DNA of 64,000 bases from contig CM057462.1 of assembly GCA_030035585.1 (NCBI GenBank), positions 117,175,234 to 117,239,233 on the forward strand, read 5' to 3'. The translations under genes and the position numbers were made by a program. The notes beneath the pieces were generated by a model that was not told the origin of the DNA, did not search any database, and saw nothing but the letters and a program-made list of their open reading frames with translations. Below, in pieces: positions 17,173-61,297 of this stretch. The stretch comes from Dugong dugon. Its lineage: Eukaryota; Chordata; Mammalia; Sirenia; Dugongidae. Every line of letters begins with the position of its first letter. The stretch's first letter is position 1.

Positions 17173-17238
17173 CTACAATGTCTGAGCCGTGAAGACAGCT
17201 TCCTCTTGACTGTATGGATTGTCTAAAGGTAGCAAGAC
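17173..17238 (-). pseudogene. UOX: UOX exon 8 (coding part), with a 17-base deletion
   Basis: After the acceptor TTTTCTGCAG the exon reads VLLPLDNP and then TA joined directly to CA GTC AAG AGG AAG CTG TCT TCA CGG CTC. The intact family reads NPYGKITGTVKRKLSSRL, so exactly 17 bases are missing at 17,212/17,213. The C-terminal Ser-Arg-Leu, a type 1 peroxisomal targeting signal, is still spelled in the DNA but lies in another frame. In the shifted frame a TAG follows at 17,173-17,175. The codon after the SRL triplet is AGA, so the original stop appears changed too. The 3' UTR limit is not visible. Confidence 0.94.
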
Positions 17239-17689
17239 CTGCAGAAAAACCACGTTAATCTCAGAGGCATTAAAATACCTCCCCTCCTTTTTTATATGAA
17301 TCAATATTTAAACAACAACAACCTGTTAAACAGGAAAATGTATGTGCTGTGCAGTGAAGTTACTTCAAGCATGGCAGTGTATTATTTTTCTGGCAATAGG
17401 TGAGAGTTGATTTACCAGAAAATTAAAGTTTTTAAAAAATGTTTAATCACTGGGATATGTTTCTAAAATGCATTACATATCCCTGCTTTTCCAACAGAGT
17501 GTGGAGAATATAATTTGACCTTTACTTGATGACTCACTTTGCACATCAATCATCGTCCAGTGCTGTGATACAGCCATGCCCTCAGGAGCATATGAGGTCT
17601 GAAGGGCTGTTAGCCTAATGCTAATGGCTCCAGACAGCTGTGCTTTCAGAGTTCTTCCATCTTCCCGCTCTGCCATTTGTCACTTTTCT

Positions 17690-18050
17690 GCTGTTGTCAG
17701 TGTGTCCTGACTCCTTGCTTCCTGTGTGTTGCCTTCACTTTGTACACATCTGCTGGGTCAGAGCCTGAGAGCGGCTCCAGCCAGGCCCATGGTGCAGACG
17801 CAGAAGCAGGGACAGAGCCTTGACTCAGAGGAACTTTGGCCTTCCTGCCTCCAGGTCCCTGGCTGGGCTGTGGAAGGGAGCTGGGGGATGAAGTCTGACT
17901 TCCTGGATGAAGGAACACTACTGCCTCAGCCCACCAGCAAGCCCTCGAGCTGGATCAGCCCAGGCCTGAGGCATCAGGGGCCCTGAGGATGCATGCCTTC
18001 CTCACTCTGCCTGGGGTCCTGTGCTGAGCACTGCTCCAATTAAGTCATGA
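17690..18050. other. G/C-rich unassigned block in UOX intron 7
   Basis: Noticeably richer in G and C than its neighbours, with open frames on both strands that share no motif I know. It could be an old repeat or random open sequence. Confidence 0.3.
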
Positions 18051-18107
18051 AACCTGACCTTTTTTCCTGCTTGGGTCCACTTGTTTTGCCTCTAGTGGAT
18101 ATGGAGT

Positions 18108-18310
18108 CCCTGGGTGGTGAAAACGGTTAACATGCTCCGCTGCTAACTGAAGGCTGGAGGTTCGAGTCCAGTCAGACACTTCAGAAGAAAGGCCTGGTGA
18201 TCTACTTTCGAAAATCATTGAAAACCCTATGGAGCACAGTTCTACTCTGACACACAAGGGCTCACCATAAGTTGGAATCGACTTGATGGTAACTGGTGTT
18301 TGTTTTTTCC
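18108..18310 (+). repeat. AfroSINE, long variant
   Basis: Begins GGAGTCCCTGGGTGGTGAAA and ends 'gttggaatcgacttgatggt'. It carries an extra middle part ('agaaaggcctggtgatctac'). Confidence 0.85.
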
Positions 18311-18856
18311 TGGTGGATATAGCCAGGATTTCTTTCAGGTCTAAATTTAAATTAATGAAATTTCAGTAGTCAACACCCTTTCCTTCTTCTGAAGTACATA
18401 GCACTGCCCTTCTTTCAGCTGAAAGAACGGCATATGGGATCAAGGTCGCTCTCCTTTGCCACTCAGGACTCCATATCACTTACACCAGGCACCTAACAAG
18501 AGCTTTGTTCTCCAGTGCTGCCCCCTCAACCACTACCTGCTACGGAAGGCAGGGAAAAGCCAGGGGAGTCCGCCAACAGTCACTGCAGAACAAAGTAAGG
18601 TATCTGGCAGAGGGGCTCTGACTACGGAGACTGCTGAGTCAGCAGACCCAGAATGTAGGATCTTCCTGAAGAACCTTTATTGGCCTTTACCCATCAAAGG
18701 ATGTGATTCTAAGGCAGCAGAGCTATGTTAATCGATGGCCCCTTCTTTGCCTCATTCCCCCACACACAAAAGAAAAAGTTTCCTAAAATGGAGTTTTTCA
18801 AATTTTAGAAGTCTGTGGGAGGATGCATCAAATAGAGGAATCCTATCATTTTAAAA

Positions 18857-19070
18857 TAGGAGTCTCTGGATGGTTCAAATGGTTAAGCTCTTGACTACTA
18901 GCCAAAAGGTTGGTGGTTCAAACCCACACAGAGGCCTTGGAAAACAGGCCTGGCGATCTGCTTCTGAAAGGTTGCAACATTGAAAACCCTATGGAGCACA
19001 GTTCTACTCTGCACACATGGGGTCACCAGGAGTTAGAATCAACTACAGGGCAACTAACAACATCATTCTG
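18857..19070 (+). repeat. AfroSINE, long variant
   Basis: From 'ggagtctctggatggttcaa' to 'agaatcaactacagggcaac', with the 'ggcctggcgatctgcttctg' middle segment. Confidence 0.85.
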
Positions 19071-19163
19071 AAATTGGTTTAAGGGGGAGGGACAATTCTA
19101 ATATCCCTAAATTGGCCACAAAGGCTATCTGTCAGGATTTTAGGCTATCTAGTTGGGCATACA

Positions 19164-19378
19164 AGGGGCCCTGGTGGGGCAGTGGTTAAGGGCTTGGCTG
19201 CTAACTGAAAGGTTGGTGGTTCGAACCTATCAGGTGCTCTGCAGCAGAAAGATGTGGCAGTCTGCTTCCGTAAAGATTACAGTCTTGGAAACCCTATGGG
19301 GCAGCTCTACTCTGCCCTACAGGGTCAGTTTGCTATGAGTCAGAATCGACTCGATGGCAACGGGTTCGGGTTTGGTAA
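19164..19378 (+). repeat. AfroSINE, well preserved
   Basis: From 'ggggccctggtggggcagtg' to 'gaatcgactcgatggcaacg'. One of the least diverged copies here. Confidence 0.9.
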
Positions 19379-19946
19379 CTGGACATACTAAGTGGTTTAA
19401 CTTTCTGTCATGGCTAAAATGGGTCAAGGTAAGTGTTTTTTGCAAGACAAGGTTTCCTTTCAAAAAAATGAATTTCTTCATCCTGCCATCTGTAATTGCA
19501 ATTAGAAACACAAATACTCTTTCATCTTTCTGTGCGTTGTGTATGCTATTGAATTGACCACTTAATCAAAAGATAGAGACGATGGAAGAAACTGAAAACA
19601 GCATCTTTTTTCTCTCCCTATTGCCTCATGATGGAAGAATAATGAAGCTGAGACCTTGTGTGGCACCTTTTGAGGAAGCAGCTCTCAGAGCTGTTTCCTT
19701 GGGCACACTTTGTTCTTTCTTTTTCTTTCCCACTGCAGCTTCCAACCCTCCTCTATAATTATTCATCTACTTCTAGGGTACACTAGCCACAGGCACTGAA
19801 AGGCCTAGGGTCTGAGAGAGCTCTAATCAGTGGCGACTATAAATATTCTCCCAAGCAACAGCTGCTAAGAGTTTTAGTCGGTGATATTATCATCCCAAGT
19901 TTATAAAGACGGGTGGGAGGTGTGCTATTTTTTAGAGTTCTCTTAC

Positions 19947-20030
19947 CTCTTCCTTGTTGGTCAGTCCCACTTTGGACATGTCTGTATTAAAATAGTGAAT
20001 GTTTGGCAGGCTGATTTCCATGTCTTCTAT
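19947..20030 (-). pseudogene. UOX: UOX exon 7
   Basis: The acceptor is GCATTCCAG and the donor GTAAGA. The 84 bases give 28 codons, reading [20 protein letters not shown], then VGLTNKEE. The LPN-IHYF motif carries the asparagine and histidine that line the urate site in the family. Differences from pig are IDMSKMGLI to TDMSKVGLT. The exon is intact in itself. Confidence 0.95.
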
Positions 20031-20059
20031 CTGGAATGCACAATAATATGTATCACATT

Positions 20060-20344
20060 GGGTAGTTGTGAGTCTCTCTATTACCACCCACTCCCCACCT
20101 TACTCAGGCTCCACCTCTGCCTCTGAGGCACCGCCTGCTGCCTCTCTGTTGCCCTACACTCTTCTCTCCTGCTGGTCCTGCTAGTAAAAGGTGGGCCCAC
20201 TCTTCTCAGTGTACAAAATCTGCTCCTCTGAAAAGCAAGTGTTCCTTGGGTCACAAACCTGGGAGACCTCTTAGATGTCCAACTGGTCTCCATATGCTGG
20301 CAAGTTAACCTCCTAAATTCCTCCTAATTCCATTCCCTCCTCTC
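20060..20344 (+). repeat. L2 LINE, 5' piece of an interrupted copy
   Basis: 'cacaaacctgggagacctct' and 'attccattccctcctctct' match L2 3'-region text. It resumes after a 650-base insertion at 20,995. The start is approximate. Confidence 0.55.
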
Positions 20345-20994
20345 TAGGCCTGTCCCTAACATTTGCAGGCTTGGGGGTAAGACTATTAACTGGAGGCCCG
20401 TATACCAGATGCCTAAAGATTTGAAAGTTATAAATCAAACTAACAAACTTTTTAAAGTAAAATATGTTCTAGCCTTCTAATCTTACAAATATATCTTTAT
20501 AATGACCTAGAAGGTAAGTTCAAATTTAAAATTCTCTGACTCCTTGGAGTGCCATGCCAAGACATGGCAGCATGGGAAGAGCTAGCCCCCAGCCCTGGCC
20601 CACCCACTTTCTCTCTTGGACTCAGGTGGGTGGGCCCCCGCCTGCACATCAAGTCTTACCCATACCTCCTGCAAACAGCTGCCCCTTTGACAACCCTCCA
20701 GCCTAAGGGTGTGCACACTAATGGCATGATCTGTTCTCTGGAGGGTGGATCTGGGAAAGACCCCTGTGCAGGCTTGGAAGTAGGCTCAGAGCTATTTTGG
20801 CAGGAAATTTTGGAGGCCCAGGTATCGAGAGAAGGGTCTAAAAGGCGATGTGTGGGCTCCTGGGGGGTTTGTTCCCTCGGACCCACAAACTTCACCCAGC
20901 GGAGAGAGGCATAGTCAGAGGAAGGCCTGAAGGGGGTCTCTAAAGTACTGGGTCATAGCAGGAGTCCCTCTTGCCCAGGCCTAAAGGCAGTACT
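20345..20994. mobile_element. 650-base insertion inside an L2, family unnamed
   Basis: Bounded by the direct repeat CCTCCTCTC (20,336-20,344 and 20,995-21,003), and L2 text runs on smoothly if it is removed. It begins TAGGCCTG and has the inverted CAGGCCTA at 20,976-20,983, just inside the right end. No poly-A tail. It looks like a nonautonomous DNA transposon, but the inverted repeats do not reach the right border exactly. Confidence 0.45.
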
Positions 20995-21630
20995 CCTCCT
21001 CTCCATCCCTGCCATTGCCTTAGCTCGGGCCCTCCTTACCAGATTTCTACAATAGCCTCCAAACAGGTGTCCTTGCCTGTGATCTGTCAGCCTTTTAATG
21101 ATCACACTTCTTTCAGAGTGATCTTTCTAGAGTGCAAATCTGGTCATGTCACATCCCGCTTATACCCTCAAAGCTCTCAGGATAAAGTACAGACTCTATA
21201 GCTAAGCCCAAAGTAGCCCTTCCCGATCTGAACCCTGCCTTGTCTCTAGGCACATAGAAATACTTTCACTCCTGGAGCTTCACATGTGGTCAACAAGCTC
21301 AACAGTAAACAACTATACCATGCTGTCTCCTGTCTCCATAACGCCCTTTGCTTCCTCATCCTCAAGTGTGAACCCAGATAGCCCCTACTTATCGCTAAAG
21401 TCTCAACTCAAGCACCTCTCCCTCCAGGGAGCCTGGCTGGCCCTATCCTCTAAACCTGTGTTAGATGCCCTCCTCTGTATTTCCATAATACTCTATTCTC
21501 TAGTGTATTGTTAGTTTACTTATTTTCTTTTTTTCACTGAATGATGAGCTCTTTCAGGGTAAGGAGCATTTTTAATTTATCTTTGTATCTCTCATTCGCT
21601 GGCAGAGACATACTAACCATTCAATAATAT
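20995..21630 (+). repeat. L2 LINE, 3' piece
   Basis: Clear L2 3' text: 'gagtgatctttctagagtgc', 'aaatctggtcatgtcacatc', 'ctttgtatctctcattcgct', ending near 'cattcaataa'. Confidence 0.75.
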
Positions 21631-21637
21631 CAAATGG

Positions 21638-21800
21638 GAACCCTGGTGGCATAGTGGTTAAGAGCTCGGCTGCTAACCAAAAGGTCAGCAGTTCAAATCC
21701 ACCAGCCACTCCTTGGAAACCCTATGGGGCAGTTCTACTCTGTCTTATAGGGTTGCTATGAGTCAGAATCGACTCAACGGCACCTAACAACAGAAACAAT
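21638..21800 (+). repeat. AfroSINE
   Basis: 'gaaccctggtggcatagtgg' to 'gaatcgactcaacggcacct'; short standard form. Confidence 0.9.
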
Positions 21801-21804
21801 ATCA

Positions 21805-21858
21805 AACGAATGGATGGATAGATGGGTGGATGGATGGATGGATGGATGGATGGATGGA
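21805..21858 (+). repeat. (ATGG)n microsatellite
   Basis: About thirteen tandem GGAT/ATGG units directly after the AfroSINE tail. Confidence 0.9.
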
Positions 21859-22221
21859 ATCTCTCTACATCTATCCTTTATTCTCTGGCTCCCCTGAAAC
21901 ATAGGTCCTCCATTTAATTACCCTTCCCTCAAGGCAATCAGGTGTCATGAATACGAGGCCTAAATCAGTAGAAGGTTGAAAGGACTCAAAGAATTCTCAA
22001 CAAAACTAAAGAACCACAGCAGAGGCCTGTGTTTTTAAGTTGGACAGATTTTTCCATTTTTTGCTCTCCTCTCACTTGCTATAACAAGCTTTTGAACAAT
22101 AACAGATGTCATTTTTCATATGTCTTACAATTTCTTATTTTAACTCTCAACTCTTTTTCAGAGCTGACAGGAAACACAACAAGTTCTCTCAATCCTCAGA
22201 ATGGCAAGTGACAAAACCTAC

Positions 22222-22344
22222 CTGGGAACCCGGCTCAGGGAGAGCACTTGGATGTCATAGAGGGTCTTCTGGACAGAGGGCGAGAACTCGCCTTTGTCAT
22301 AGGGCCCAGCAAATTTCTCCAGGACAATGTTCCAAACAGTATCC
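22222..22344 (-). pseudogene. UOX: UOX exon 6, with a 1-base deletion at its 3' end
   Basis: The acceptor is GGGTTTCAG and the donor GTAGGT. The exon reads [20 protein letters not shown], then [20 protein letters not shown]. The first six residues (DTVWNI) are unusually divergent from GTIRDL of pig and human, including an Arg-to-Trp change; the rest is highly conserved. The last codon should be GAG before phase-0 exon 7, but the exon ends CCCAG, 123 bases instead of 124, so one base is missing at the junction. Confidence 0.93.
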
Positions 22345-22689
22345 CTGAAACCCAGAGAAGGGAACTGAGGACTCTCATAGAGTCATCTTTCAAGAATGCA
22401 TTGGAAAGCTATAAAGCAGTGACCCTTTTGCCCCTCAGAAAACAATTTTATTGCTGATTTTAGATGCGATTAATATCTGACAATGTGCAAAAATCTCACT
22501 TCCCATTTCCCTTCACACGCACGCACACTCATACATCACCACCACCATTCAACAAACATATTGAGTATCACTAGGCTGTCTTCATAGTCTAACACCAGGG
22601 CTGAATGGGCATTCCAGGGTAAACTTCCCTCAGCATTTGAAGAACCTATAAAGAGGACTCCTATTACTGCTCAGCTTGGCTAGTCCCTT

Positions 22690-22930
22690 GAATTGTTACT
22701 TGACTGAGCTCCCCACATAAAGACAAAATTCCAGTGTAGTCACTCATTCAGTTTATTTTTCTTCATAACATTTGTCATTACCTAATACTATATTGTTCTT
22801 TTTTGTTTCCCCCATACAGTTGAGCTCCACAGTGCTAGGAATTTTGCCTGTGTTGTCTTACTGTTACATCTCTAGTTACACATAATAAGTGATCACTAAA
22901 CATTCATTGTTTTGCATAATTCATTCTCCA
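22690..22930 (+). repeat. L2 LINE, 3' fragment
   Basis: 'catttgtcattacctaatac', 'gagctccacagtgctaggaa' and 'aagtgatcactaaacattca' follow the L2 3'-end order. The following bases to about 23,340 resemble another old, unnamed interspersed repeat. Confidence 0.5.
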
Positions 22931-23642
22931 AATATTCCTTAGATACTTATAATAAGCCAAGAACTCTGCTAGCCACTGTGATACTAATATGTACAAGATA
23001 TGGTCTTTATTGTAATAGTTGAGACTGACATATAAACAAATATTCATTCATTTAAGAATATTTGATTTCCCATTAAGTTCTAGGCAATACTTCTTAATAC
23101 TCAGTATGCACAAAGGGCAAAATTACCCATGGTGGGAAGGTCTAGAGAGAGTGTCACCCAAAAGAAGACATTTTGAGCTGAGTCTTAAAGAATTAATAGA
23201 GGGTTATCACGTAAGAACAAGAAAGGAAAGGGCAAAAATAGCCACATATGCTGATGCAAATAAGAACATGGTAATCAGGCAACTTTGGGAACTTGGAAGG
23301 GATCTGATTTGAGTTGAGAAGGAAGGAAGTGTTTATAGATGTTACAGAGCCAGACGTTCATATTATCATATAATTAAAGGCGTAGAACAAATCTGTATCA
23401 GTGGGAGGAAGCTACCAGAAGCATGTTTCAGCTTATTATACATAGGGTAAAAGTTTCTAACAATCAGAGCTTCAGCAAAGAAATGAGATGCCTGGTCAAA
23501 AAATAAGTTATCAGTCTCTGGAAGTCCAGGAGCCTAATTACTGCTTATCAAGGATATTGTAATAAGAATCTTACCTTTATGTTTTTAAAGCATGTAACAT
23601 TTACAAAGTGCATCAATGGATATCATATCACTTTGAGTTTAG

Positions 23643-23760
23643 CCTAGGGTGACCAATTGTCCCAGTTTGCCCAGGACCAAGGGGTTTACCAGGACACAGG
23701 ACTTTCATTGCTAAAACCAGGAAAACCCTAGGCAAACTGGGAAGAATTAGTCACCCTAAA
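23643..23760. mobile_element. Small palindromic DNA transposon (MITE)
   Basis: Terminal inverted repeats: AGGGTGACCAATTGTCCCAG at the left pairs with ...AATTAGTCACCCT at the right, with TA at both borders. That fits a Tc1/mariner-type MITE about 115 bases long. Confidence 0.65.
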
Positions 23761-23826
23761 CTAGTTTTGCCCTCTCTATAATCCTCTGAGGTAGTAAGGC
23801 CAGAAATTGTTATCTTCATTTAGTCC

Positions 23827-24020
23827 AGTGGTTCTTAAGGTGTGATTTCCCAGTCCAGTAGCGTCAGCATCACCTGGGAGTTTGTTAGAAATGCAAATTC
23901 TTGGCTCTTACCCCAGACCTACAGAATCACAAACTCTGAAGGTGGGGTCCATCAATCTCTGTTTTAACAAACCCTGCTGGTGATTCTAATATACTCTAAT
24001 GTTTTAGAACTACTGATTTA
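23827..24020 (+). mobile_element. MER5A-like hAT-Charlie MITE
   Basis: CAGTGGTTCTTAAGGTGTGA to 'ttttagaactactg', with 'agcatcacctgggagtttgt' and 'aggtggggtccatcaatctc' in between. Nearly full length; it lies 128 bases past the end of UOX exon 5. Confidence 0.75.
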
Positions 24021-24147
24021 AAAAATTAAAAACAGAGAGTTTTAAACTAGAAATTCCTTTCAGGTATAAGACTCCATGAATTCTGGACACTGGCAAACAG
24101 AGCAAATACTACCTGCCTCAGAGCTAGGGCCTAGCACCCATTCTTAC

Positions 24148-24334
24148 CAGGTGGCCTAGAAGTCTACATCTCTGCATTGGCGGTAGTGCCACTTGCAGTA
24201 CACCTGGGTGGCAAAGCACCGGTCCTTCACCTCAGGGAGGATGGTGAACTGGTCTTTAATGAATCCTTCAAATCCAGACTGAGTCATTTTCAAGAACTTG
24301 AGATCTTTGATTCCGGAATGAATGACTGGAGATT
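24148..24334 (-). pseudogene. UOX: UOX exon 5, with a nonsense codon and a degraded acceptor
   Basis: The exon reads [56 protein letters not shown], then TAG (24,156-24,158) where the family has Glu (GAG), then AT. The donor is GTAAGA. The inferred length is 187 bases, exactly what the protein requires (2 + 61 codons + 2), so there is no indel. The phase-1 end of exon 4 puts the exon start at 24,334, but the two bases before it read AA, not AG. A polypyrimidine stretch and a TTCTAAC branch-like motif remain just upstream. A cryptic AG in TCTCCAG could splice in frame and drop Gly-Pro-Pro. Confidence 0.93.
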
Positions 24335-24787
24335 TTATTTCAAGTTAGAAAAGGTAAGAAAAGATGAGATGATAAAACAGTTTCTTCTCACTGAGAACTA
24401 GCACTGAGAACCCTAGTCATTAAAACATGGCATACTATATTAATAAAAGAACTACATCTCTGCTCCTTGATTTCTTTCTTCTTATCTTCTATCAAGTCTG
24501 AGTGATGAGGATGGTGTGCCTTTCCCTCTGTCTAGATTCCATGAATACCTACTCTGAGAAGTTAGAGCCAACTACAAGGTTTAGAGGGCACACAGTGTCC
24601 ACACAAAACTGCCTAGCCTCACTTCTTACACAAACTGCTAGTTCAAGGGCTTCCCAAAATCACCCCTGGTTTGATAATTCTCTAGAAAGACTCATAGAAC
24701 TCAATGAAAGTTATTATATCCACAGTTACAGTTTATTTGAGGGAAAGCATACAAATTAAAATCAGCCAAATGCAAGTAGTACATAGG

Positions 24788-25291
24788 TGACATAGATTGA
24801 ATTGTGTCCCCCAAAAAATGTGTGTAGCAACTTGGCTAGGTCATGATTCCCAGTATTGTATGACTGTGTTATCTGATGCAATTTCTTTATGTGTTGTAAA
24901 CTCTACCACTATGATAAGATTATATGTGATCTCCTCATGTGTTGTAAATTCTATCACTGTGATGAGGTTATACTGATGAGGTTGACAAGATTAGTGTCTT
25001 AATGCAATCTCTTTTGAGATATAAAAGAGAGAAGCCAGCAGAGACACATGGGAACCTCATACCACCAAGAAAGCAGTGCTGGGAGCAGAGCGCGTCCTTT
25101 GGACCTGAGGTTCCTGCGCAGAGAAGCTCCCAGACCCAAGGAAGACTGATGACATGGACTTTCCTCCAGAGCCGATGGAGAAAGCATTCCCCTGGAGCTG
25201 ATGTCCTGAATTTGGACTTGTAGCCTACTGGACTGTGAGAGAATAAATTTCTCTCTGTAAAGTCATCCAGATGTCTCAGATGACTGAGACA
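24788..25291 (+). mobile_element. Afrotherian MaLR-type solo LTR with target duplication
   Basis: Starts TGACATAGATTGAATTGTG and ends ACTGAGACA, flanked by a perfect 5-base duplication ATAGG (24,783-24,787 and 25,292-25,296). TG...CA ends and a 5-base duplication fit an ERVL-MaLR LTR. A whole solo LTR fossil. Confidence 0.85.
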
Positions 25292-25311
25292 ATAGGGTAG
25301 AGTCCAAAAAC

Positions 25312-25525
25312 CAAAAACCAAACCCACTGCTGTCGAGTCGATTCTGACTCATGATGACCCCACGTGTTGCAGAGTAGAACTGCTCCATAGGGTTTTCTTG
25401 GCTGTAATCTTTGTGGAAGCAGATACCTAGGACTTTTTTCCAGGCTACTGCTGGGGGGGGTTTGAACAGCCAATCTTTAGGTTAGTAGTTGAGCACACAC
25501 CATTTGCACTACCTAGGAACCTTGG
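25312..25525 (-). repeat. AfroSINE
   Basis: The reverse complement reads from the SINE head (25,525 side) to the tail 'gtcgagtcgattctgactca' at the low end, beginning about 20 bases after the LTR. Confidence 0.85.
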
Positions 25526-27377
25526 GTAAAGTCCAGGGAGTACCAAACATGAAGCTTCCATGTCCTCTCCTTATGGAGTCAGGACACATTACTTACCCAA
25601 AACTGATGTGTGATAATATGCATAAATATTGCCAACCACGAGAAGCTCACTCAAGCCTTCAAGCCTCAGTGTACAGAATTTTTATTGGGGCTTCATTATG
25701 TAGGCATAATGGATTGATTGATTACCCATTTGGTTGATCTCAGTCTCCAGGTCAACTGATACCACATGACTCAAAGCCCTCACTATAAATCACATAGTTA
25801 GTCTTTCTGTTATTCCAGCTCCCACTTTAAGATTGTCCAGTGACTCAAGGCCTCCAAGCAAGCAAACACATTCCTATCAGGCATGACATTCCAAGAGCCT
25901 AGAGATTACCTCCCAGAAGCTGAGAACAAAGGCCAGAAATTCTCTTTGGGCAAGGCCAAATTATTTACTACATACCTGCCCTCTCCTGCCCTAGGAGAAC
26001 TGAAGGCCAGAGAATAAACTTCCCAGTTGTGATGAAGCCCACAAAAATGAATACCTGCCTCTCAGCTACTTGCAGGGGTGTTTTTCTAGGCCAAGACACT
26101 TAACACATTTTGAGCTCCATCTCATTCAACAGGCAATTATGCCAAATGAGTTAATAAGCTCCTCAAAAGCCATTCCTCTATCTACTTTTGACACTGCAAC
26201 TCATTTACTGGAGATTGTTCTTATCGGTCAACCATCTACACTGGCTGATGACTCCACCAGACCCTAATGGTGACTCAGTTCCACTGTAGCAATGAGCTCA
26301 GCAAAACCAGACAACTTCATGCAAGAGTAGAAGCATGTGCCTGGCTGAGTCTCAGCAGTAAGACTGGGAAGATAAGGTTGGTGACCCATATGGGCGATAC
26401 CCCTAAAGGCTTTTGATTTTTGACCAAAGGATAAAGGAGAAAATTGGTTCATGCATACCTAGGGGGCACAGGGAAGAGTTAAAAACAATGGAGGAGATGA
26501 TATGGCTCTCCTACTGCCCCTGAGGTCATCCCATAAGGTGAATGGAGAAGGTGGAAGCATGATGAGCATAATCTGAAGAAGCTGTTTACTTGTGTGCCAA
26601 GCAGTTCTGGCTCAGGGCCCAGGAGACAGGTGGGGCACAGAGTTAGGGAGGCGAAGAGTCTCTCTTTTTCCATATGGAACACACTGTAACTCCAGCACTT
26701 AGGTGGAGCCTGAAGAGAACATGGAGCTGTGTGCACACTTGGAAGTCCCAAGGTACAATGCTCTGTGGAGAGCAACCTTCTTCCCAACTGACACAGCAAA
26801 TACGGGCAGAGCCAGTGAGATTGTAGTTATACCCAGTGTGCAAGCTTCTTCCTGAGCACGAGTGCAACTGCCCTTGGAGGCTGTCAGAGGAAGGGGCGGG
26901 AGAGTTTGGCTACAGAGGCTCTGTATCTTGGTAGTGAGGAGCTACAAAGCCAGGGAAATATGGGAATCAACATTAGCACCATGACCTTATTTGTATACTC
27001 AGGCTGATGAGGTGGGGGGGATGTTGAGAAGACAGGTACAAACTTCCAACTACAAAATTTCATGGGAGGATTATTAAGGTCACCTCTCTTCAGTCTCTAA
27101 GTTAGTTCCAATTAATATCTATCGCTCTTGGCCTATTTCTGTAAATCAAGGGCCTAAGGTATCAGGCATCACCACATTGTATGTGATCTTTGTTGAAGAA
27201 CAAGAATGTAACTCATAACCCACAATTAAAATCCAGGGAAGCTCTTAATAATCCAATCACTTACATCCCTGTGTGGTTTTAATTGCTGTGGTTAACTCAG
27301 CAGCTGTGGAGTTTCAGAACTAGGTAAATAATGACTGTATTTCGATATTTTTCTCTACTATATATGTGTACCTACAA
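25526..27377. other. UOX intron 4, unassigned part
   Basis: About 1.85 kb without a repeat or exon that I can name. ORFs on the minus strand at 26,479-26,867 show no known motif. Confidence 0.35.
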
Positions 27378-40573: not shown

Positions 40574-40652
40574 CATTCCTCGTCTGTTCAACCTCACAGA
40601 AGTGTGTTCCCGTAGGAGTGCGAATAAATGCGTAGACATGCTTAATACCGTT
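40574..40652 (-). pseudogene. UOX: UOX exon 4
   Basis: The acceptor is TAATTTTCAG and the donor GTGAGA. The 79 bases encode [20 protein letters not shown], then VEQTRN, plus one base of the next codon (phase 1). This is the length expected from the protein family. The exon is intact. An AfroSINE sits about 40 bases past its 3' end, at 40,385-40,535. Confidence 0.95.
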
Positions 40653-40743: not shown

Positions 40744-40860
40744 CTTTTCAAATCGCTTCCAAGGGACTTCTTCCACATAAACTTGAACTTGGATTACATG
40801 GTTGAAAGAAGAAAGGAAGTGCTCACAGATGTTCATAGCAAAAGTTTCTATGCTTTTGAT
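40744..40860 (-). pseudogene. UOX: UOX exon 3
   Basis: The acceptor is TTTTTACAG and the donor GTTATC, which is weaker than usual. The 117 bases give 39 codons in phase 0, reading [20 protein letters not shown], then [19 protein letters not shown]. Compared with pig uricase, the differences are conservative or single substitutions (for example RAQ to QVQ). No lesion lies inside this exon. It is separated from exon 4 by a 91-base intron. Confidence 0.95.
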
Positions 40861-44300: not shown

Positions 44301-44518
44301 CCCTTTGAATTTTGTCAAGACATGGACTGTGTTCTTGATGGTGTCTGTAAGGATGATGTCTGAATTGTCTCCATGCAGGTAATCTTTTTTGGAACTCAGA
44401 GTAAGTTGCACCGAGTTGCCACCTCTTTAATGGAGTGGTATTTTCCATCTCGCGGAATGTAGAGAACTTTTACCATATCCTTTCCATAGGCAGTTTGGAC
44501 AAACTCCACCTCATCAAT
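44301..44518 (-). pseudogene. UOX: UOX exon 2, with a 1-base deletion
   Basis: The acceptor is TTTGCAG and the donor GTATGT. The reading gives [19 protein letters not shown], then [13 protein letters not shown], and in the shifted frame [20 protein letters not shown], ending KFKG. The lysine of GKDM and the threonine of IILTD correspond to the catalytic Lys and Thr of uricase. The exon is 218 bases, whereas the 73 residues of the family need 219. The missing base lies near 44,413-44,415, where GCAACTTCG is expected and GCAACTCG is seen. The shift leads to a TGA at 44,396-44,398. The first codon is ATT where Asn is expected. Apart from these changes the exon is well conserved. Confidence 0.96.
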
Positions 44519-51215: not shown

Positions 51216-51249
51216 CAAAGGTGCTTCTGGAGGGTGGGTGTAGGGCTGC

Positions 51250-51465: not shown

Positions 51466-51489
51466 GATAAATAATTGATAAAATTACCA

Positions 51490-51790: not shown

Positions 51791-52659
51791 CAAGCACATA
51801 CACTTCATGCAGGTGCACAGCTGTCTTAGAGATGTTGTTTACTACATAGCTCACATACCTCTATGTTTCTATGTCTAAGTTCAGAAATTCTCTATTTCTA
51901 ACTTCATATTATAAGTGACTCATATATATGAAATTACAGAAAACATACATGACAATCATATGGAATTTGAGAGCATTATGGAGTCATGTGATTCACCCTG
52001 ACCTAGAGACAGCCTACATCACTTTTCAATTTGGCCTGAAAATAAGAACACTCACTATCTCTGGCAGGGATCACAGTAGAGGATCCTGGACAGGGAGGGA
52101 GTGAAAATTCATGAGTCATTTAAAATCTCTGTGAGTTCTCTCCAAAAGTACTTGCTGGCAAGTACTGTATTTTTATGCAAATAACACACACCTTCTCCGT
52201 TTGTTTGCCAACCACTACCTCCCCTCCCCACCGTGAGGCATTTTCATAAGTACCCTACACTAATTTTTTTACAGCAACATGTGAAAAAAAATTGGTATAG
52301 CAGAGGTTACAAAAATACCTTGTGGAGGGAAGGAGCAGCTGGCAAACAAAGGTAGAAGGCATGCGTTATTTGTGTAAAAATATGGTGATGATTCTCTAAC
52401 CCTTTATATTTCGAGACATGCCTAAGAAAAAAAGATTTTTCTTGTGTAGAGCCAGGTAAAGGTTTGTTACTACTGACAGTTTGTATTACTCTAGGAAATT
52501 GAGTTTCCTCTTGTAATTTTATTTCCTCAAGTTGCACAAACCAGAGGAAGGAAAACCAAAGGTGTGATAAAAGAAATGTTAACATGTAGCTAAATTCCTG
52601 TAAGGTGGCCTTGACACATAAGTATATCATAAACAATCCCTTTAATCTCTGATTTTGAG
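51791..52659. other. UOX intron 1, nothing recognised
   Basis: Repeats the phrase 'cagggatcacagtagaggat' at 52,065, also present in the L1 3' UTR copies, so a scrap of that L1 may lie at 52,060-52,105. Otherwise unassigned. Confidence 0.35.
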
Positions 52660-53145
52660 GAAATATGCCTCTCGTACCACAGCCTGGAGATTACAGGCAA
52701 AACTGGCCTGTGACTAGTATTGGTTAAGCATGACATCACCTGGCCCTTATCGTGTGAAGCCAAGGTGATAAAATCACGTATATACCCTGAATTTCTGCTT
52801 ACTCACTGAGAGAAGACAGTGGCAAAAGGTCTCTCTGGCTTTCTCTGAAGACTAAGAGACTGCTGAGATACTGCCCGCCATATCCAACCTCAGCCCCTAG
52901 CTACGTGGGACCTTCTCTGAGTTCAATCTGTGGTTAAGCCTTCCTTCTGAAACCACTTTTTAATGGTAAACAGCTGAAGTCTAAATATTTGGTCTCTAAT
53001 CATTGAACTAACATTGTAACTGTTAACCCTGATTCTCCAGTGCTAACTGAATGCCTTGAGGTCTTACTTGAGCTCCTTGCCATGACTACCTTGCAATAAA
53101 CGAAATGAATTTACGCATTATGAACCTGAGCATTTATTTACTTAT
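52660..53145 (+). mobile_element. LTR-like repeat, family unassigned
   Basis: A TATA-like 'cacgtatataccc' near 52,776 and a CAATAAA near 53,094 are spaced as in an LTR. The opening phrase 'ccacagcctggagattacag' also occurs near 47,879, hinting at a dispersed family. Treated as a fossil of unknown class. Confidence 0.4.
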
Positions 53146-53504
53146 TCCTAAGATAAAAATCATACAGGACACAGGAGTTCTTAATCTGGAGCCTATTTAC
53201 CTCTAGAAGGCCCAGTGGATAGATCTGAGGCAGAACTGTGTACTTCATGAAGTTGTAACCAAAACTTTACGTGTATGTGTTCACAGAAGGAGGTATTTTT
53301 CTGGGGAGGGCATTCATAGATTTCATTAGTTTCTAAAAGGGTTCATGATCCATAAAACTTTAAGAACCATTGACCTGTGTGATTGGGGTCTGAATTGTTA
53401 GGGTCACCTTTGACAAATGGACTTTGCCACGATATGACAATTAGTCATGAAACAGCAGGAGAGGGAAGAAGAGATCATTCTTGGTGTGCAGCCACATGGA
53501 TGCA

Positions 53505-54135
53505 ATGGAGCAGTGGTCTAGAGATTAAGAGCATATGAGCTCTAGAGTCAGACCGCCTGAGAGTGACTCTTGGTTCCACAACCTGCTAGCTATATGGACT
53601 TATGTTGTTAACCTGCCATTGAGTCAGCTCCAACTCATGGCAATCCCACATATAACAGAATTAAATGTTGCCCAGGCTTGTGCCATCTTCACAATCATTG
53701 GTATGCTCAAGTCCATTGTTGCAGTCACTGTCTGAGTGCTTTCCAACCTAGGGGGGGCTCGTCTTCCAGCACTACATCAGTCAATGTTCTGTTGTGATCC
53801 ATAAGGTTTTTTCACTGGTTAATTTTCGGAAGTAGCTTGCCAGGGTTTTCTTCCTAGCCTGTCTTAGTCTGCAAGCTCTGCTGAAACCTATCCACCACGC
53901 GTGACCCTGCTGATATTTGAAATATTGGTGGCATAGCTTTTAGCATTGTAGCAACATGCAAGCTACTGCAGTACAACAACCTGGCCTTATACAAATTATT
54001 TAATCTCCTTATTCCTTCACCTTTTGATCTGTAAAATAGGGTAATGATAGCATCTATTTCCTAGAATTGTTTTGAGGTTGAAATTAAGTGATGTGAATAG
54101 TGACTAGCACATAGTAAATGTCAATGGATTTAGCT
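53505..54135 (+). repeat. MIR SINE split by an RTE derivative
   Basis: MIR halves at 53,505-53,603 ('gagctctagagtcagaccgc') and 53,983-54,135 ('atctgtaaaatagggtaatg'). Confidence 0.7.
53604..53982 (-). repeat. Internally deleted RTE derivative
   Basis: The complement joins an RTE 5' region (53,750-53,980: 'ttcctagcctgtcttagtct', 'gaaatattggtggcatagct') directly to an RTE 3' end (53,610-53,720) with the whole coding part missing and no tRNA-like head. Confidence 0.75.
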
Positions 54136-54589
54136 ATCATGATCTGGCTTGCCAATTTGACCAAAAGTCACAGTTGGAACACTGTATACTAGTTTCATCA
54201 CCAAGTATGAAGAGACAGCCTTGCTTCTCTTTTCGACAAGGAAGACTAAAGATCCCATAAAGGTGTTCATTGCTTTGTGCTGTAGGTATCCTACTGATTA
54301 AGCAAATCTTTGTTTATATTAAGCATATTTTAAATGAATCCTAGCTGTTCATAAGCATTTATGGCAAATCTTTTTATAAAGCTAATACACTCTATTCTCC
54401 CCCTATGCATAATACTTTTTAGCCTCTGTGCATTTATCCATGCCTCCTTTCAATAATAACAGTCACCAGGTACCAAAAGAATTTTCGCCTGTTTTATAGA
54501 CAAGGACTGAGGCAGAAAGAAGCACATTTCCCTGGCCTCACAGCCAGGATTTGACTTCAGGTTTTTCTGTGCTTTTAAACACCAACCAA

Positions 54590-54900
54590 TGCTCCTTCCC
54601 TCTACCTGGAATGCCATCTCTCCACATGGCATGGCTCATCCCACAAGTGACCTTCTCCATAAGCTTGCCCTGATGCCCTCAACAGGAAATAACTGCTCTT
54701 GCCTTTGAACTCCCAATCCACTTCAGGTGAACAGTCACCAGCTGCTCAGGTCACTTTCTTGCTTTATTATTCTTACTTGTGTACATTCCTTAGTATTCTC
54801 ACTATCAAAGTCTTAAAAATAAGATCAAGTCAGCTATGTCTTCCTCACAGTAGCTAAGAGTGTTTCATAAATGGTGATTAATGATTTGTCCAAAGAATGA
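54590..54900 (+). repeat. L2 LINE, 3' fragment
   Basis: 'tctacctggaatgccatctc', 'cataagcttgccctgatgcc' and 'tacattccttagtattctca' in L2 order. Confidence 0.6.
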
Positions 54901-55434
54901 GCCCACTCATTTTACAGATTATTTCAGAAAATTTAGCTTATTTTTATTTTAATAAGAAAAACGTGGTTTTCAGTTCCAAGTCACTCTAACAATTCAACTT
55001 CAGGCTCATAGTCACAAGTAAGTTACAGGGTGAGGTTGCCGGGAGGGGGATGGTATCTGGCCTACATAGTTTATATTTTCCTTGTAAGAACTCCTGTTTA
55101 AAGAAACAAAATTTGTTTGTATCACTTGTGAGTCCAAAATTATTCTCAGGAAATACAAATCATTGTGAAACTGTCCCTGGGTCTCTATAATATTAAACAT
55201 TATCAGAAGCAGCAATAATTATGGCACAGTTTCCAACTATTTAAACCTCTGGCACACACTTATTCATTTTTTGCACAGAACTGTTTCTTCATTTTAGTAG
55301 CTGCTTTTAGCTATGGTCTTATGTTTTTGATTCCAGTATACCAAACTTCAACCACTGAATTTCTCTACTCTGCTGGAGAAGGAAAATACTTCATTTAAGA
55401 CCTTTTTTAATTTTAGCTTTTTCCCAATATTTAG

Positions 55435-55645
55435 ATGTTGTTGTTGTTGTTTGCCATTGAGTCGATTCTGACTCATAGCAACCCTATATGACAGAGTAGA
55501 GCTGCCCCGTAGGGTTTACTAGGCTGTAATCTTTACATTAGCAGATCACAGGTCTTTTCTTCCATGGAATGGCTGGTATATTCGAACCACAGACCTTTTG
55601 GTTAGCAGCTGAGTACTTAACCATGGTGTCACCAGGCTCCTTAAT
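55435..55645 (-). repeat. AfroSINE
   Basis: (GTT)n, then 'ttgagtcgattctgactcat' to 'aaccatggtgtcaccaggct'. The long T/G tail is that of a fairly young copy. Confidence 0.9.
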
Positions 55646-55711
55646 ATTTAGATACAAAGTTTGATTTGATTTGATGTGTCCGTGTGTTTTCACAAAATGT
55701 GTATTCACATA

Positions 55712-56232
55712 TGTCTTAGTTTCTAGTGCTGCTATAACAGAAATACCACAAGTGGAAGGCTTTAACAAACAGAAATATATTCTCTCACAGTCTAGGAAGC
55801 TAGAAGTCTGAATTCAGGGCTCCAGCTCCAGGGGAAGGCTTTCTCTCTCTGTCGGCTCTGGGGGAAGGTCCTTGTCATCAATCTTCCCTGGTCTAGGAGC
55901 TTCTTAGCACAGGGACCCCAGGTCCAAAGGACAGGCTCCATTCTTGGCTCTCTTTGCCTGGTGATAATGAGGTCCCTCTCCTCTCTGCTTGCTTCTCTCT
56001 TTTGTATCTCAGAGGAGACTGACTCAGATACAACCTAATCCTGTAGATTGTGTCCTGCCTCATTAACTTAACTGCTCCCTAATTCTGCCTCATCAGTATC
56101 ATAGAGGTTAGGATTTACAGCACATAGGAAAATTACATCAGATCACAAAATGGAGGACAGCCACACAATACTGGGAATCAGGGCCTGACCAAGTTGGCGC
56201 GTATTTTTGGGGGGTCAATTTACTCCATAACA
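55712..56232 (-). mobile_element. Afrotherian MaLR-type solo LTR
   Basis: TGTCTTAGTTTCTAGTGCTG ... TACTCCATAACA, reverse orientation. A whole-length solo LTR fossil. Confidence 0.8.
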
Positions 56233-57011
56233 TTATATGTGGATTTTAATTACAGGAGATCTATTGGGAAAATATTAGGATAGATAAGGGAAAACTTTTC
56301 TCACTTTAAATTTACAATGACTAAAAATTTCCCTCAAGTCTTAGAAGAGCTTCTATAGTCATCGTCTCTATCCTCCCTAATAGGGAAAAATATAAAAAGC
56401 CTAGCTACTTAGGACCTATCACACATGTGTAAATATCAATTCAGGTGACACATGCTGTAATGAACGGAAAAACTGCAGATGGAGACTGCCCCTCTCTCTG
56501 TTTTGATCATGCTAGAAAAGGACTTCCAATTCACTGACCAGGTTTTTCCTGGCTATTTCCTTAGGCTTTTGTGAACAAAAAGACTTCAGAGAAAAATGCT
56601 GAACTAATGTGAGAAGAAAATAAGCACTAATATGAATAATCTTGATATCATTTTGTTGGATCTTAGCAATATATTATAACGGTAAGAACTATTATGGTGA
56701 ATAATAATTTTAGAGGCATCTGGCATTTTTTTGGCTGTCCCAAATCTACTAAATGTTAAATGGAAAAATGTTGATATCAGGTAAAAAATGTCATGTTGCC
56801 ATAATCTGCAGAGTGGCTTGTTATTACCTTCAAGGGGGATATGCCCTGCCATACATTCACCGTATGACTCTAAAGGGATTTGTCAAGCAGATGTTTCAAG
56901 AACAGTATAAAAACTTATCTGCATAACTATGGGAGAAAGAAAGGGTGACCTGTCACCTAATGAAGAAGCCATTTACAGGTGCTCAGTCATTTTCATTCTT
57001 CTACCTATTAC
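56233..57011. other. UOX intron 1, nothing recognised
   Basis: A/T-rich sequence without a named element. Confidence 0.4.
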
Positions 57012-57172
57012 AAGGAGCCCTGGTGGTGCAGTGATTAAGAGCTATAGCTGCTAAACAAAAGGTCGGCAGTTCAAATCCACCAGCCACTCCTTGGAAACCC
57101 CACGGGGCAGTTCTACTCTGTCCTGTAGGGTCACTATGATGGAACTGACTCGACAGCGCCTAACAACAACCT
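57012..57172 (+). repeat. AfroSINE
   Basis: 'caaggagccctggtggtgca' to 'ctgactcgacagcgcctaac'. Confidence 0.9.
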
Positions 57173-57429
57173 ATTACAAAGGATGAGAAACTCAGCACTA
57201 AATAGTGCAGGAAATGCTAATTTTCTTGCTAGCCCTCTTTACAGCACCTGTGGGCCTTGTTCCAGCCTTAGGGTAGGGAAGCTGGAACAAGACCCACAGG
57301 AGCCCCTAGGATTGGGAGTAGAAAATCCCACAATAAAGAATTGATGGAGAACCTCAAAAATGGGATTGGAAGCAAATTTTACTGAAATGAATACATTGAA
57401 AGACATCTCTTTCCTAATGTATAAGTCTT

Positions 57430-58060
57430 GAAAGTAAAAATAATAGTAGCAACCACTTATTGAAGGTTTGCTGTCTGTTGGAAAATTTACATATTTTATG
57501 CAAATTTATATTAGCATTATACATGCAAATTTTCTGACAGGCAGCAAATGCTCAATAAATTTCCTCTAAAGTGGGCAGTGGGGGGTTCAGTGGTAGAATT
57601 CTCACCTTCCATGTGAAGACCTGGGTTGGATTCCTGGCCCATGCACCTAATGCACAGCTACCACCTGTCTGTCTGCGAAGGCTTGCATGTTGCTGTGATA
57701 CTGAATAGGTTTCAGTGGAGCTTCCAGACAAAGATGGGCTAGGGAGAAAGGTCTGGTGATCTACTTCTGAAAATCAGCCAGTGAAAACCCTATGGCTCAC
57801 GATGGTCTGACCTGCAATGATCACGGGGATGGTGCATGATCAGACAGCATTTTTTTCAGCTGTGCATAGGGGCACCATGACTCAGGACCCACTAGCTAGC
57901 AACAACAATTTCCTCTAATCCTTACAAGAACCCTGTGAAATAGGTATTATCCAAGTTTGCTAAAGGAAGACACTAGGGTTAGGTAACCTGCCAAGGTCAC
58001 ACAGTTACTAGGTGATAGAGGCAGGATAAGAACCCAGCCCATCTTCTCCAAAATGACATG
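57430..58060 (-). repeat. MIR SINE split by a tRNA-Gly SINE
   Basis: MIR halves at 57,430-57,569 and 57,908-58,060 ('ggtaacctgccaaggtcaca', 'gaggcaggataagaacccag'). Confidence 0.7.
57570..57907 (+). repeat. tRNA-Gly-headed SINE with RTE body, exact borders
   Basis: Flanked by a perfect 11-base target duplication ATTTCCTCTAA (57,559-57,569 and 57,908-57,918). The head 'gggttcagtggtagaattct' is tRNA-Gly-like; the body includes 'ctgaataggtttcagtggag' and 'cttccagacaaagatgggct' from the RTE 5' region and ends CTAGCAACAACA as RTE does. Length 338 bases. Confidence 0.9.
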
Positions 58061-58444
58061 CTCTTACCTACATTAAACCTATGAAAGATGGAAGCTGTGT
58101 AAGGTGGAAATCTGTCAGAGAAGGAAAATTCAAATATTTTCCGCTAAAATGAGCGATATAAAAGTGGTAAGATAGTACCTTGTTAAAGGCAGAAAATTTG
58201 GGAGACCCGGAAAAACTAGGCAGTGCTGTTGAGTTCTGGCTCTCACAGGTTTCATTGTAGTTCTAATGCCCCCTTTGATGACCAGTCCCCCTCCACTCAT
58301 TAGGTGGGGAAACAAACTACTCTGAACCCAACAGAAGGAGGGAAATGGGCATACTACTGCAGAAACTTGTATCTTTATACCATTTTTTAGTTTTCTACCT
58401 ACTGAGACCTACATTATCTTATCTATTCCTCACAACATGGTTTA

Positions 58445-59198
58445 GTAGATAGAATCCCATGTCTCCTGGCTTTCAAAGAGTGGAGCCACAGCCTCCTAGG
58501 TTTCAAAGCGTCGGTTCCAGAGTGTGGGGCTGGCTGCCTTTAAGATGTGCCAGGGGGATGGGACTGCCCCCAAAGCAGAGGAGGTGGGACTGCCATGCCC
58601 AAGGGGCAGAAGAACAGGGACTGCCAGGGCCAAGGAGGTATGGTCACCACTCAGATAGACTAAGAGAATGGGGCCACCCAAAGCTGAGGAAGCAGAGTTG
58701 TCTCCCCAGTGGGCCTGGAAGGCAGAGCTGAAGCCCTGGGCCTAGGGGCCTCCACTCAGAATTCAGAAGGCATGGCCAACACCCAGAGTCTGGAGGGTGA
58801 GGCCATTGCCCAGACAGTATTAGAGAACAGAAGATTATTTTCAAACCTTGAGAGCTAATGTAAATTGTTCTGCTGAGTTTTAGACTTGCTGGGTGCCTGT
58901 TATCCCTGCTTTCTCTCTGATTTCTCCCATTTATAATGGAAGTGTCTACCTTGTGCTTGTTCCACCATTGTACTTTGGAAGCAGATAACCTGTATTCTAG
59001 ATTTCACAGGCTCTCAGATGAAGACGAATTTTGCTCCAGGATGGAATATGCCTAACGTCTCACCCATATTTGATTTAGATGCTTCAAAAGATGAAATTTT
59101 GGACTTCGAGTTGATTTAAGACTTGTGGGATGATGTGATGGGGTGAGTATGTTTTGCATGTGGCAAGAACATGAATTTTGGGGGGCCAAAAGGTGGAA
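58445..59198 (+). mobile_element. MaLR internal region, 3' part (fossil)
   Basis: Text such as 'tgatttctcccatttataat' and 'ccaccattgtactttggaag' resembles the 3' internal part of MST/THE1-type MaLR elements, leading straight into an LTR at 59,199 after a purine-rich tract. Broken, several breaks. Confidence 0.6.
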
Positions 59199-59605
59199 TG
59201 TTGTGGATTGAATTATGTCCCCCAAAATATGTGCTGTAAATCTTAACCTCTATGCCTGTGGTTATAATCCCATTTGGAAATGGGCTATCTTTTTTATGTT
59301 AATGAGGCAGGATTAGTATAGGGTATATCTTGAGACAATCTCTTTTGAGATATAAAATAATTTAAACAGACAAGCTAGAAAGCAGAGATGGGGGAAAATT
59401 GATGCCCAGATATATGGAGATCCCCAGGAAACCAGGAAGCAGAAGCTGAAGAGACAAGGAACTTCCTTCAGAACCAACAGAGAAATCCTTCCCCTTGAGC
59501 CAGCACCCTAAATTTAGACTTCTAGCCTCCTAAAATAAACTTCTATTTGTTAAAACCACCCACTTGTGGTATTTCTGTTATAGCAGCACTAGATAACTAA
59601 GACCA
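59199..59605 (+). mobile_element. MaLR-type LTR with internal sequence on both sides
   Basis: TGTTGTGGATTGAATTATGT to ...ACTAAGACCA. Both flanks are MaLR internal sequence, so it is not a solo LTR. Confidence 0.75.
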
Positions 59606-59845
59606 AATATGGTACCAAGAAGTGGGAGTGCTTCTCTAAAATACCCAAAATGTGGAAGTGGTTTTGGAATTGGGTAATAGGTAGAGCCTAGAAGATTTTT
59701 AAGATGCCTAATAGTAAAAGCCTAGATTGTCTTGAAGAGACTATTAGTAGAATTATGGATGTGAAAGGCAATTCTGGTGAGGACTCAGAAGGAAGTGAGG
59801 AGAGCTATAGAGAAAGTCTCTATCATCTTAGAGAATTCATATGGT
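59606..59845 (+). mobile_element. MaLR internal region, 5' part (fossil)
   Basis: 'tatggtaccaagaagtggga' and 'gtggttttggaattgggtaa' match the start of MaLR internal sequence just after a 5' LTR. Broken. Confidence 0.65.
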
Positions 59846-60226
59846 GCCAAAAGAACAGAAATTTATTTTCTTATAGTTCAAGAGGCTCAAAGTCCAAAGT
59901 CAGGGCCCTGGCTCTAGGGAAGTCTCTCCCTCTCTGTCTCTGAGGGAAGATATTTGTCTCAGCTTCTATAACCCAGGCATTTTTCAGTTCCTTAGCGATC
60001 TCCACCTGGCATCTATCTTTCCTCCATTTGTGCTTGTTTGCGTCTCTCTGTGTCTAATCTGCTCTTTTGATGTCTCAAAAGTCTTTAGGTTTAAGACACA
60101 CCGACCTTGATATGGCCTCATTTATATAACAAAGAAAACTTTATTCTCAAATGGGATTGCATCCACAGGTATAGGGGTAAGTATTCCAACACTTCTTTTG
60201 TGGGGACACAGTTCAATCCAAAACAC
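59846..60226 (-). mobile_element. Second LTR, opposite strand (fossil)
   Basis: 'cagaaatttattttcttata' to 'ggacacagttcaatccaaaa' reads as a MaLR-type LTR on the minus strand, more diverged than the others. Confidence 0.55.
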
Positions 60227-60654
60227 CATTCTAATGCAGATGCTCCCCAGCCCAACCACAGGAAGGGCTCAGGTTGCAGTAAGAATAATTTTAGCTAACA
60301 TTTGTGGATCATTTACCATTTGCCAGGCACTGTGCTAGGCATGTAATTAGGAGAAGAAAACAAGAATTATTTTATATCTAATCAACAAACATTCTTTAGT
60401 CTACACGACTGGAAACAAGTTGCTTACAGTCTCTATGAAATGCATCCATGAATCCTAAGCCAGGTGTGTTCAGCTATTACCACTGTAACACCAAAAAGTA
60501 TCACAAAATAAATAAAATTTATTTTATTTCACTTTAACTTAGAAAAGTAAACTTCATGCCATAAAATTAAACAAATGACAAAAAGGCTGGGTGGTTGATA
60601 TCCTTTTCCTGAATACAGTCAAAACATATGAAACAAGATGATAACCACAGAGGG

Positions 60655-60700
60655 ACGATAAAAAAAAAAAAAAAGAAAGAAAGAAAGAAAAAAAGTGGTT
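60655..60700 (+). repeat. A-rich low-complexity tract
   Basis: Long A run followed by (GAAA)n. Nothing else recognised between 60,230 and 60,770. Confidence 0.85.
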
Positions 60701-60774
60701 CCTGGCTTAGCCAATTCAGTCTGTTCCCTGCAGAAGGCTGTGAATCTACCAGATACAGCATACCTTTGGTCTCA

Positions 60775-60905
60775 GGGCAGTGAATCCCAAAATTTAGGGT
60801 ACAGAGAATCACCAATGAACTTGTTAACAATACAGATTCCTGAGCCCAACCAGAAGGATTCTGATTTAGCAGGTTTGGAATGAGGCTCAGAATTCTGCCT
60901 TTTTG
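60775..60905. mobile_element. MER5-like hAT MITE fragment
   Basis: 'gaatcaccaatgaacttgtt' and 'gattctgatttagcaggttt' resemble MER5B. Termini incomplete. Confidence 0.45.
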
Positions 60906-61267
60906 CAGGCACGACAGGTAAATGTGGATGAGTGGTCCAGAGCACCCCTCACAAAATTCTGTCTTAGGAGAAATAGAGCCTTAAGCCCTCCCTTTCCTAA
61001 GAACACTAAGAATCCTGAACAACTCCAACTGGACCATAGAAGTGATCCAGTCTGCAAGGGTCCAGTTTGGTCTGGATCTCCAAAGTGACTGATCTGGATC
61101 CACAATCAGAGGGACAGAGCAGAGCCACCATGATTTCCAAGCATGAGATAAACTGCTATTTACAATAAGAGCATCTTTAGTAATTGATTCAAACAGCATC
61201 CGGCATTTAAGCAAATTCTTTTCATATGTCTATCTACTTCCCTCCTCCAAAAAGAGACTGGTCTCAC

Positions 61268-61297
61268 CTTTTTATAGTTGGTGTGGTAATGAGCCAT
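61268..61297 (-). pseudogene. UOX: UOX coding exon 1
   Basis: Thirty bases from the ATG (61,297-61,295) encode MAHYHTNYKK, which matches the mammalian uricase N-terminus MAHYHNNYKK apart from one Asn-to-Thr change. The start context is GGAAAATGG. The exon ends AAAAAG, followed by a consensus donor GTGAGA, in phase 0. This exon itself is intact. It is too short to stand out as an ORF and was found by its expected place next to DNASE2B. Confidence 0.95.

What the first reader, a model, noticed from the sequence alone, without database searches (positions are those of the whole stretch)
17173..61297. Urate oxidase is a unitary pseudogene in this afrotherian
All eight exons of UOX are found in order with conserved splice structure, yet at least four independent coding lesions and one splice lesion are present. 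Loss of uricase is famous in apes and is thought to raise serum urate. A second loss in a large, long-lived lineage outside primates would be a notable case of convergence and predicts urate, not allantoin, as an end product or high plasma urate. The exons are otherwise well preserved, which suggests a moderately recent loss. I do not recall with certainty whether this has been published.
Basis: partly seen in the sequence, partly recalled or inferred. Interest (0 to 1): 0.9.

Follow-up and report, generated by a model that had tools for sequence, protein, structure and literature searches.

The report
Broken uric-acid enzyme gene in dugong
The dugong's gene for urate oxidase, the enzyme that breaks down uric acid, is dead, as is already published for manatees and elephants; the dugong copy very probably shares one stop codon with manatees, which would place the loss before the two sea-cow lineages split.

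Summary
Confirmed observation, largely known phenomenon. Eight UOX exons lie on the minus strand (17.2-61.3 kb) with five disabling changes: 1-bp deletion in exon 2, lost exon 5 acceptor, stop at codon 208, 1-bp deletion ending exon 6, 17-bp deletion in exon 8; the normal stop codon is also lost. The genome is dugong: its URAD is 173/173 identical to the Dugong dugon record. UOX loss in elephants and manatees was published in 2019 (PMC7671337, passages); no held paper names both dugong and UOX. An Amazonian manatee 'LOW QUALITY' uricase lacks exactly residue 208 and manatee is reported with an exon 5 stop, so the stop is probably shared and older than crown Sirenia (about 31 Myr, PMC11219930). 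Elephant has Lys208 and a different lesion: separate loss. URAH is also broken in dugong, URAD open: the pattern reported for hominoids. The predicted high plasma urate is contradicted in relatives, whose reported serum urate is 0.2-1.1 mg/dl. One family search saw no second copy; the whole-protein search never ran.

The parts
61268..61297 (-). UOX exon 1 coding part, ATG intact, MAHYHTNYKK, donor GT
44301..44518 (-). UOX exon 2; one base missing in codon 46 (two bases left, 44413-44412), first in-frame TGA at 44398-44396
40744..40860 (-). UOX exon 3; splice sites intact; codon 107 is CAA (40791-40789); elephants are reported with a TGA in exon 3
40574..40652 (-). UOX exon 4; splice sites intact, no frameshift (manatee is reported with a 4-bp deletion here)
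24148..24334 (-). UOX exon 5; acceptor dinucleotide reads AA (24336-24335), codon 208 TAG at 24158-24156; exon start inferred from the manatee protein
22222..22344 (-). UOX exon 6; one base missing in the last codon (E252), donor GT present
19947..20030 (-). UOX exon 7; frame and splice sites intact
17181..17238 (-). UOX exon 8; 17 bases missing at 17213/17212, normal stop codon replaced by AGA (17183-17181)
62078..62200 (+). exon 1 of DNASE2B, head to head with UOX (conserved neighbourhood; human order recalled)
   Evidence: tblastn with a recalled human DNASE2B, 78% identity, E 4e-15

Best explanation
This is the orthologous UOX gene of the dugong, and it is dead (a unitary pseudogene, as far as one family search for other copies can say). 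Translated as it stands it makes a 50-residue peptide, far short of the 304-residue enzyme. The gene most likely died on the stem branch of Sirenia, because the codon 208 stop appears to be shared with manatee; the other lesions then accumulated in the dugong line. The next enzyme, URAH, is broken too, so the animal's own enzymes cannot turn urate into allantoin. Shown: the lesions and the species. Inferred: single copy, the shared stop, the timing and the metabolic consequence.
For: Five disabling changes plus a lost stop codon, in four of eight exons (2, 5, 6, 8). DNASE2B exon 1 head to head. Species: URAD of this genome is identical over 173/173 aa to NCBI Dugong dugon P0186; assembly 3,158,355,915 bases in 196 contigs against mDugDug1.hap1 3,159,179,246 in 198 scaffolds. 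One place in the genome matches PF01014 at E <= 0.001, exon 5 of this locus. Shared stop: the Trichechus inunguis model P0020 aligns with a single missing residue in exon 5, exactly at E208, and manatee UOX is reported with an exon 5 stop. Six of the dugong's nine changes at conserved sites are shared with P0020. URAH: one base missing in the middle exon, TTHVLD to TTNVLD, DGRCPG to DNCCPR, YRGS to YRRS, against a recalled mouse URAH.
Against: The manatee model shows a missing residue, not a stop letter; that a stop was dropped there is inferred, and no manatee DNA was read. The whole-protein search of the genome for a second copy did not complete. The conserved-site count is weak: dugong 9 of 122, against 0 to 17 changes in 16 placental models taken as functional; 13 of the 16 have fewer, one ties and two have more. 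Assembly figures are close to, not equal to, the published dugong haplotype; contig C22 is 77,770,096 bases and the contig behind P0186 is listed as 77,777,096. No RNA and no second individual. The start codon and most splice sites are intact.
Confidence: 0.93

Rival explanations
1. The lesions are assembly or sequencing errors in an intact gene.
For: One assembly, one haplotype; two lesions are single-base deletions, and the published frameshift-indel quality of the dugong haplotype is 41.5, below its base quality.
Against: A stop, a splice change and a 17-bp deletion stand beside them; base quality is reported at 70 from HiFi reads; an independent manatee model is also flagged LOW QUALITY and shares many substitutions.
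Confidence: 0.02
2. Dugong and manatee lost UOX separately; the codon 208 coincidence is chance or a model artefact.
For: Each has lesions the other lacks: dugong in exons 2, 6 and 8; manatee a reported 4-bp deletion in exon 4, matching the P0020 gap at residues 122-125.
Against: P0020 lacks only residue 208 in exon 5, and manatee is reported with a stop in exon 5. Glu to TAG needs a G to T transversion, not a CpG change (inferred ancestral codon GAG). Six changes at conserved sites are shared.
Confidence: 0.12
3. UOX activity was already lost in the common ancestor of elephants and sirenians, by a change outside the exons.
For: Both lineages have lost the gene; elephant changed 4 of 121 conserved sites, more than 10 of the 16 functional placental models.
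Against: No lesion is shared: elephant P0016 has Lys at 208, and its missing residues 105-109 fit the reported exon 3 stop, where dugong reads CAA. The elephant count lies inside the functional range (6 of 16 models have more).
Confidence: 0.1
4. A shortened or alternatively spliced product still works.
For: ATG intact; a cryptic AG in exon 5 (CTCCAG) would keep the frame.
Against: The exon 2 frameshift ends the product after 50 residues and the codon 208 stop removes the last third; both would have to be bypassed.
Confidence: 0.01

Closest known systems
UOX pseudogene of manatee (Sharma and Hiller, PMC7671337; passages seen)
   Same: Same gene, same order (Sirenia), stop in exon 5, very probably the same codon 208
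   Different: Manatee is reported with a 4-bp deletion in exon 4 that dugong lacks; dugong has lesions in exons 2, 6 and 8 that the T. inunguis model P0020 does not show
UOX pseudogene of elephants (PMC7671337; passages seen)
   Same: Same gene lost in a related order
   Different: Exon 3 TGA in elephants, codon 107 CAA in dugong; URAD reported lost in elephants, open in dugong
UOX pseudogene of hominoids
   Same: UOX and URAH broken with URAD open, as PMC7671337 states for hominoids
   Different: Humans have high serum urate; elephants and manatees are reported low. Hominoid sequences were not compared here

Membership tests
Unitary pseudogene of UOX | Orthologous place in the genome | tested here: met
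   DNASE2B exon 1 head to head at 62078-62200; human gene order recalled; SAMD13 exons not found with a recalled query
Unitary pseudogene of UOX | Exon-intron structure kept (not a retrocopy) | tested here: met
   Eight exons over 44 kb, 7 of 7 donors and 6 of 7 acceptors kept
Unitary pseudogene of UOX | Disabling lesions in the coding frame | tested here: met
Unitary pseudogene of UOX | No intact copy elsewhere in the genome | tested here: inconclusive
   PF01014 rings at one place at E <= 0.001, 7 candidates scored; whole-protein search unanswered
Sirenian UOX loss (shared with manatee) | Same lesion in dugong and manatee | tested here: inconclusive
   Residue 208 missing in P0020 where dugong has TAG; manatee DNA not available
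UOX loss shared by elephants and sirenians | Lesion shared with elephant | tested here: not met
   None of the dugong lesions seen in protein model P0016; K208 in elephant; DNA not available
Hominoid-like loss of uricolysis | URAH broken, URAD open | tested here: met
   URAH frameshift against a recalled mouse protein; URAD 173 aa open
Hominoid-like loss of uricolysis | Raised serum urate | not testable with these tools
   Search for dugong with uric acid listed 3 papers, none opened; relatives reported low

The most novel reading that the evidence does not exclude
Sirenians lost UOX more than about 31 Myr ago and, at least in the dugong, URAH as well (its age untested), the same gene pattern as in apes, yet judging by manatees they keep urate low; the dugong would then be a long-standing natural uricase knockout with an unknown compensating route for urate disposal.
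Probability: 0.55. Interest if true: 0.45.

Novelty: new member of a known kind. Interest (0 to 1): 0.32.

Why it matters
It extends a published natural knockout to the dugong, probably dates the sirenian loss to before crown Sirenia, and adds URAH as a second dead step in this species. With low urate reported in manatees, it makes the question of how uricase-less mammals keep urate low directly testable.

Tried and rejected
A constraint test on conserved residues was tried and is only suggestive. The comparison set is 19 of the 120 listed proteins (of 536 found): 16 placental and 3 other mammals, chosen by me as near full-length models from species where UOX is taken to work; apes, fragments and other rows were dropped. 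Several retained models look misannotated (P0015, P0024, P0027). The three others changed 4 of 123, 8 of 123 and 5 of 123 sites.

Renal urate uptake (URAT1, SLC22A12) was considered as the reason for low urate. An elephant record exists as a 553-aa protein (P0287); no row among the 120 listed of 907 is named after a sirenian, but rows stand for clusters, and the dugong genome search was unanswered, so this stays open.

Papers. PMC7671337 (passages), PMC10517255 (passages), PMC11219930 (passages), PMC11292518 (passages), PMC10936554 (passages), PMC13185315 (passages), PMC11014510 (one passage). PMC11219930, PMC11292518, PMC13185315 and PMC11014510 have no occurrence of UOX in the main text. Supplements were not read. 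Paper searches: 20 of 158 listed; 10 of 718 listed.

Full report
What is there. The PDB ancestral mammalian uricase (4mb8, letters) finds UOX exon pieces in order on the minus strand. Reading the DNA around them and placing boundaries gives eight exons: 61297-61268, 44518-44301, 40860-40744, 40652-40574, 24334-24148 (start inferred), 22344-22222, 20030-19947 and 17238-17181. Donors are GT at all seven introns; acceptors are AG at six of seven, the exception being exon 5.

Lesions. Exon 2 has two bases where the codon for Ser46 should be, which shifts the frame; translated as it stands the message ends at TGA 44398-44396 after 50 residues. Exon 5 should begin AATCTCCAGTC, judging by the manatee protein (...RNESPVIH), but is preceded by ...AATAA, with AA at 24336-24335 in place of AG. 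A cryptic AG nine bases further in would keep the frame, so this lesion alone need not be fatal. Codon 208 reads TAG (24158-24156). Exon 6 ends GTT CCC AG, one base short for Glu252. Exon 8 has four bases where seven codons stood, a loss of 17. The stop codon after SRL reads AGA. Five of these six changes are disabling in principle; they lie in four of eight exons (2, 5, 6, 8). Codon counts are against the proteins aligned.

Which species. The genome holds an open URAD gene on C22 whose 173 residues are identical to the NCBI Dugong dugon record P0186. Assembly size and contig number are close to mDugDug1.hap1 but not equal, and C22 is 7,000 bases shorter than the contig listed for P0186, so a revised version is assumed. 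At UOX the sequence shares many changes with the Amazonian manatee model P0020.

Timing. P0020 is labelled LOW QUALITY. In exon 5 it lacks a single residue, Glu208, where the dugong has TAG. Sharma and Hiller report an exon 5 stop in manatee (passages). The simplest reading is one shared stop, older than crown Sirenia, put at 31.2 Myr (27.4-37.0) in PMC11219930 (passage). Manatee's other reported lesion, a 4-bp deletion in exon 4, fits the gap at residues 122-125 of P0020 and is absent from dugong. Elephant P0016 has Lys208 and lacks residues 105-109, consistent with the reported exon 3 TGA; dugong codon 107 is CAA. On protein models alone, elephant and dugong share no lesion.

Constraint. Of sites invariant in 16 placental models taken as functional, dugong changed 9 of 122, manatee 7 of 121, elephant 4 of 121; the functional models, each left out in turn, range from 0 of 123 to 17 of 139. 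Six dugong changes (G20A, P67L, A79T, R107Q, T180I, I268T) are shared with manatee. The overlap of ranges makes this suggestive only.

The rest of the pathway. URAH lies on C21. Compared with a recalled mouse URAH, its middle exon has lost one base between GGC and TAC, and three stretches that I recall as active-site or signature positions are changed: TTHVLD to TTNVLD, DGRCPG to DNCCPR, YRGS to YRRS. URAD is open with a GT donor and an AG acceptor. UOX and URAH broken with URAD open is the pattern stated for hominoids in PMC7671337. In the passages I saw, that paper does not state URAH status for elephant or manatee; its figure was not available.

A second copy. PF01014 rings at one place in the genome at E <= 0.001, exon 5 of this locus, with 7 candidates scored. 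An intact retrocopy should have scored higher, so one is unlikely, but the whole-protein search did not complete.

Known or new. UOX loss in elephants and manatees is published (PMC7671337) and cited for Tethytheria (PMC10517255, passages). Searches for 'dugong' with 'UOX' and for 'sirenian', 'gene loss', 'UOX' together found no paper in the held library, which lacks most subscription journals. What this adds is the dugong member, the probable shared stop, and a broken URAH. The predicted high plasma urate is not supported by relatives: PMC7671337 cites 0.2 and 0.22 mg/dl in elephants and 0.71 to 1.1 mg/dl in manatees. A search for dugong with uric acid listed three papers, off topic by title and not opened. 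How urate stays low remains open.

Noticed in passing
G000 C21:30125814-30127472 (L002-L004): Dugong URAH (HIU hydrolase) looks broken: one base missing in the middle exon and changed signature residues, against a recalled mouse protein.
   Followed up: partly
G000 C22:19544939-19545113 and 19553376-19553722 (L008, L007): Dugong URAD is open over 173 aa, identical to the NCBI dugong record, whereas elephants are reported to have lost it.
   Followed up: yes
P0204 and P0210: Manatee URAD models carry odd changes (CHPDLAG to CHPHLAG in T. manatus; missing residues in a LOW QUALITY record whose name is cut at 'Tric'), perhaps decay in progress.
   Followed up: no
window 40791-40789: Codon 107 reads CAA in dugong; elephant exon 3 is reported with a TGA at a position also hit in some hominoids, and the elephant model lacks residues 105-109 here, so this codon may be a mutable CpG site.
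   Followed up: partly
L006 (G000 C2:138403883-138404026): Weak transthyretin-like match with two stops (E 4.9), possibly a TTR pseudogene or chance.
   Followed up: no
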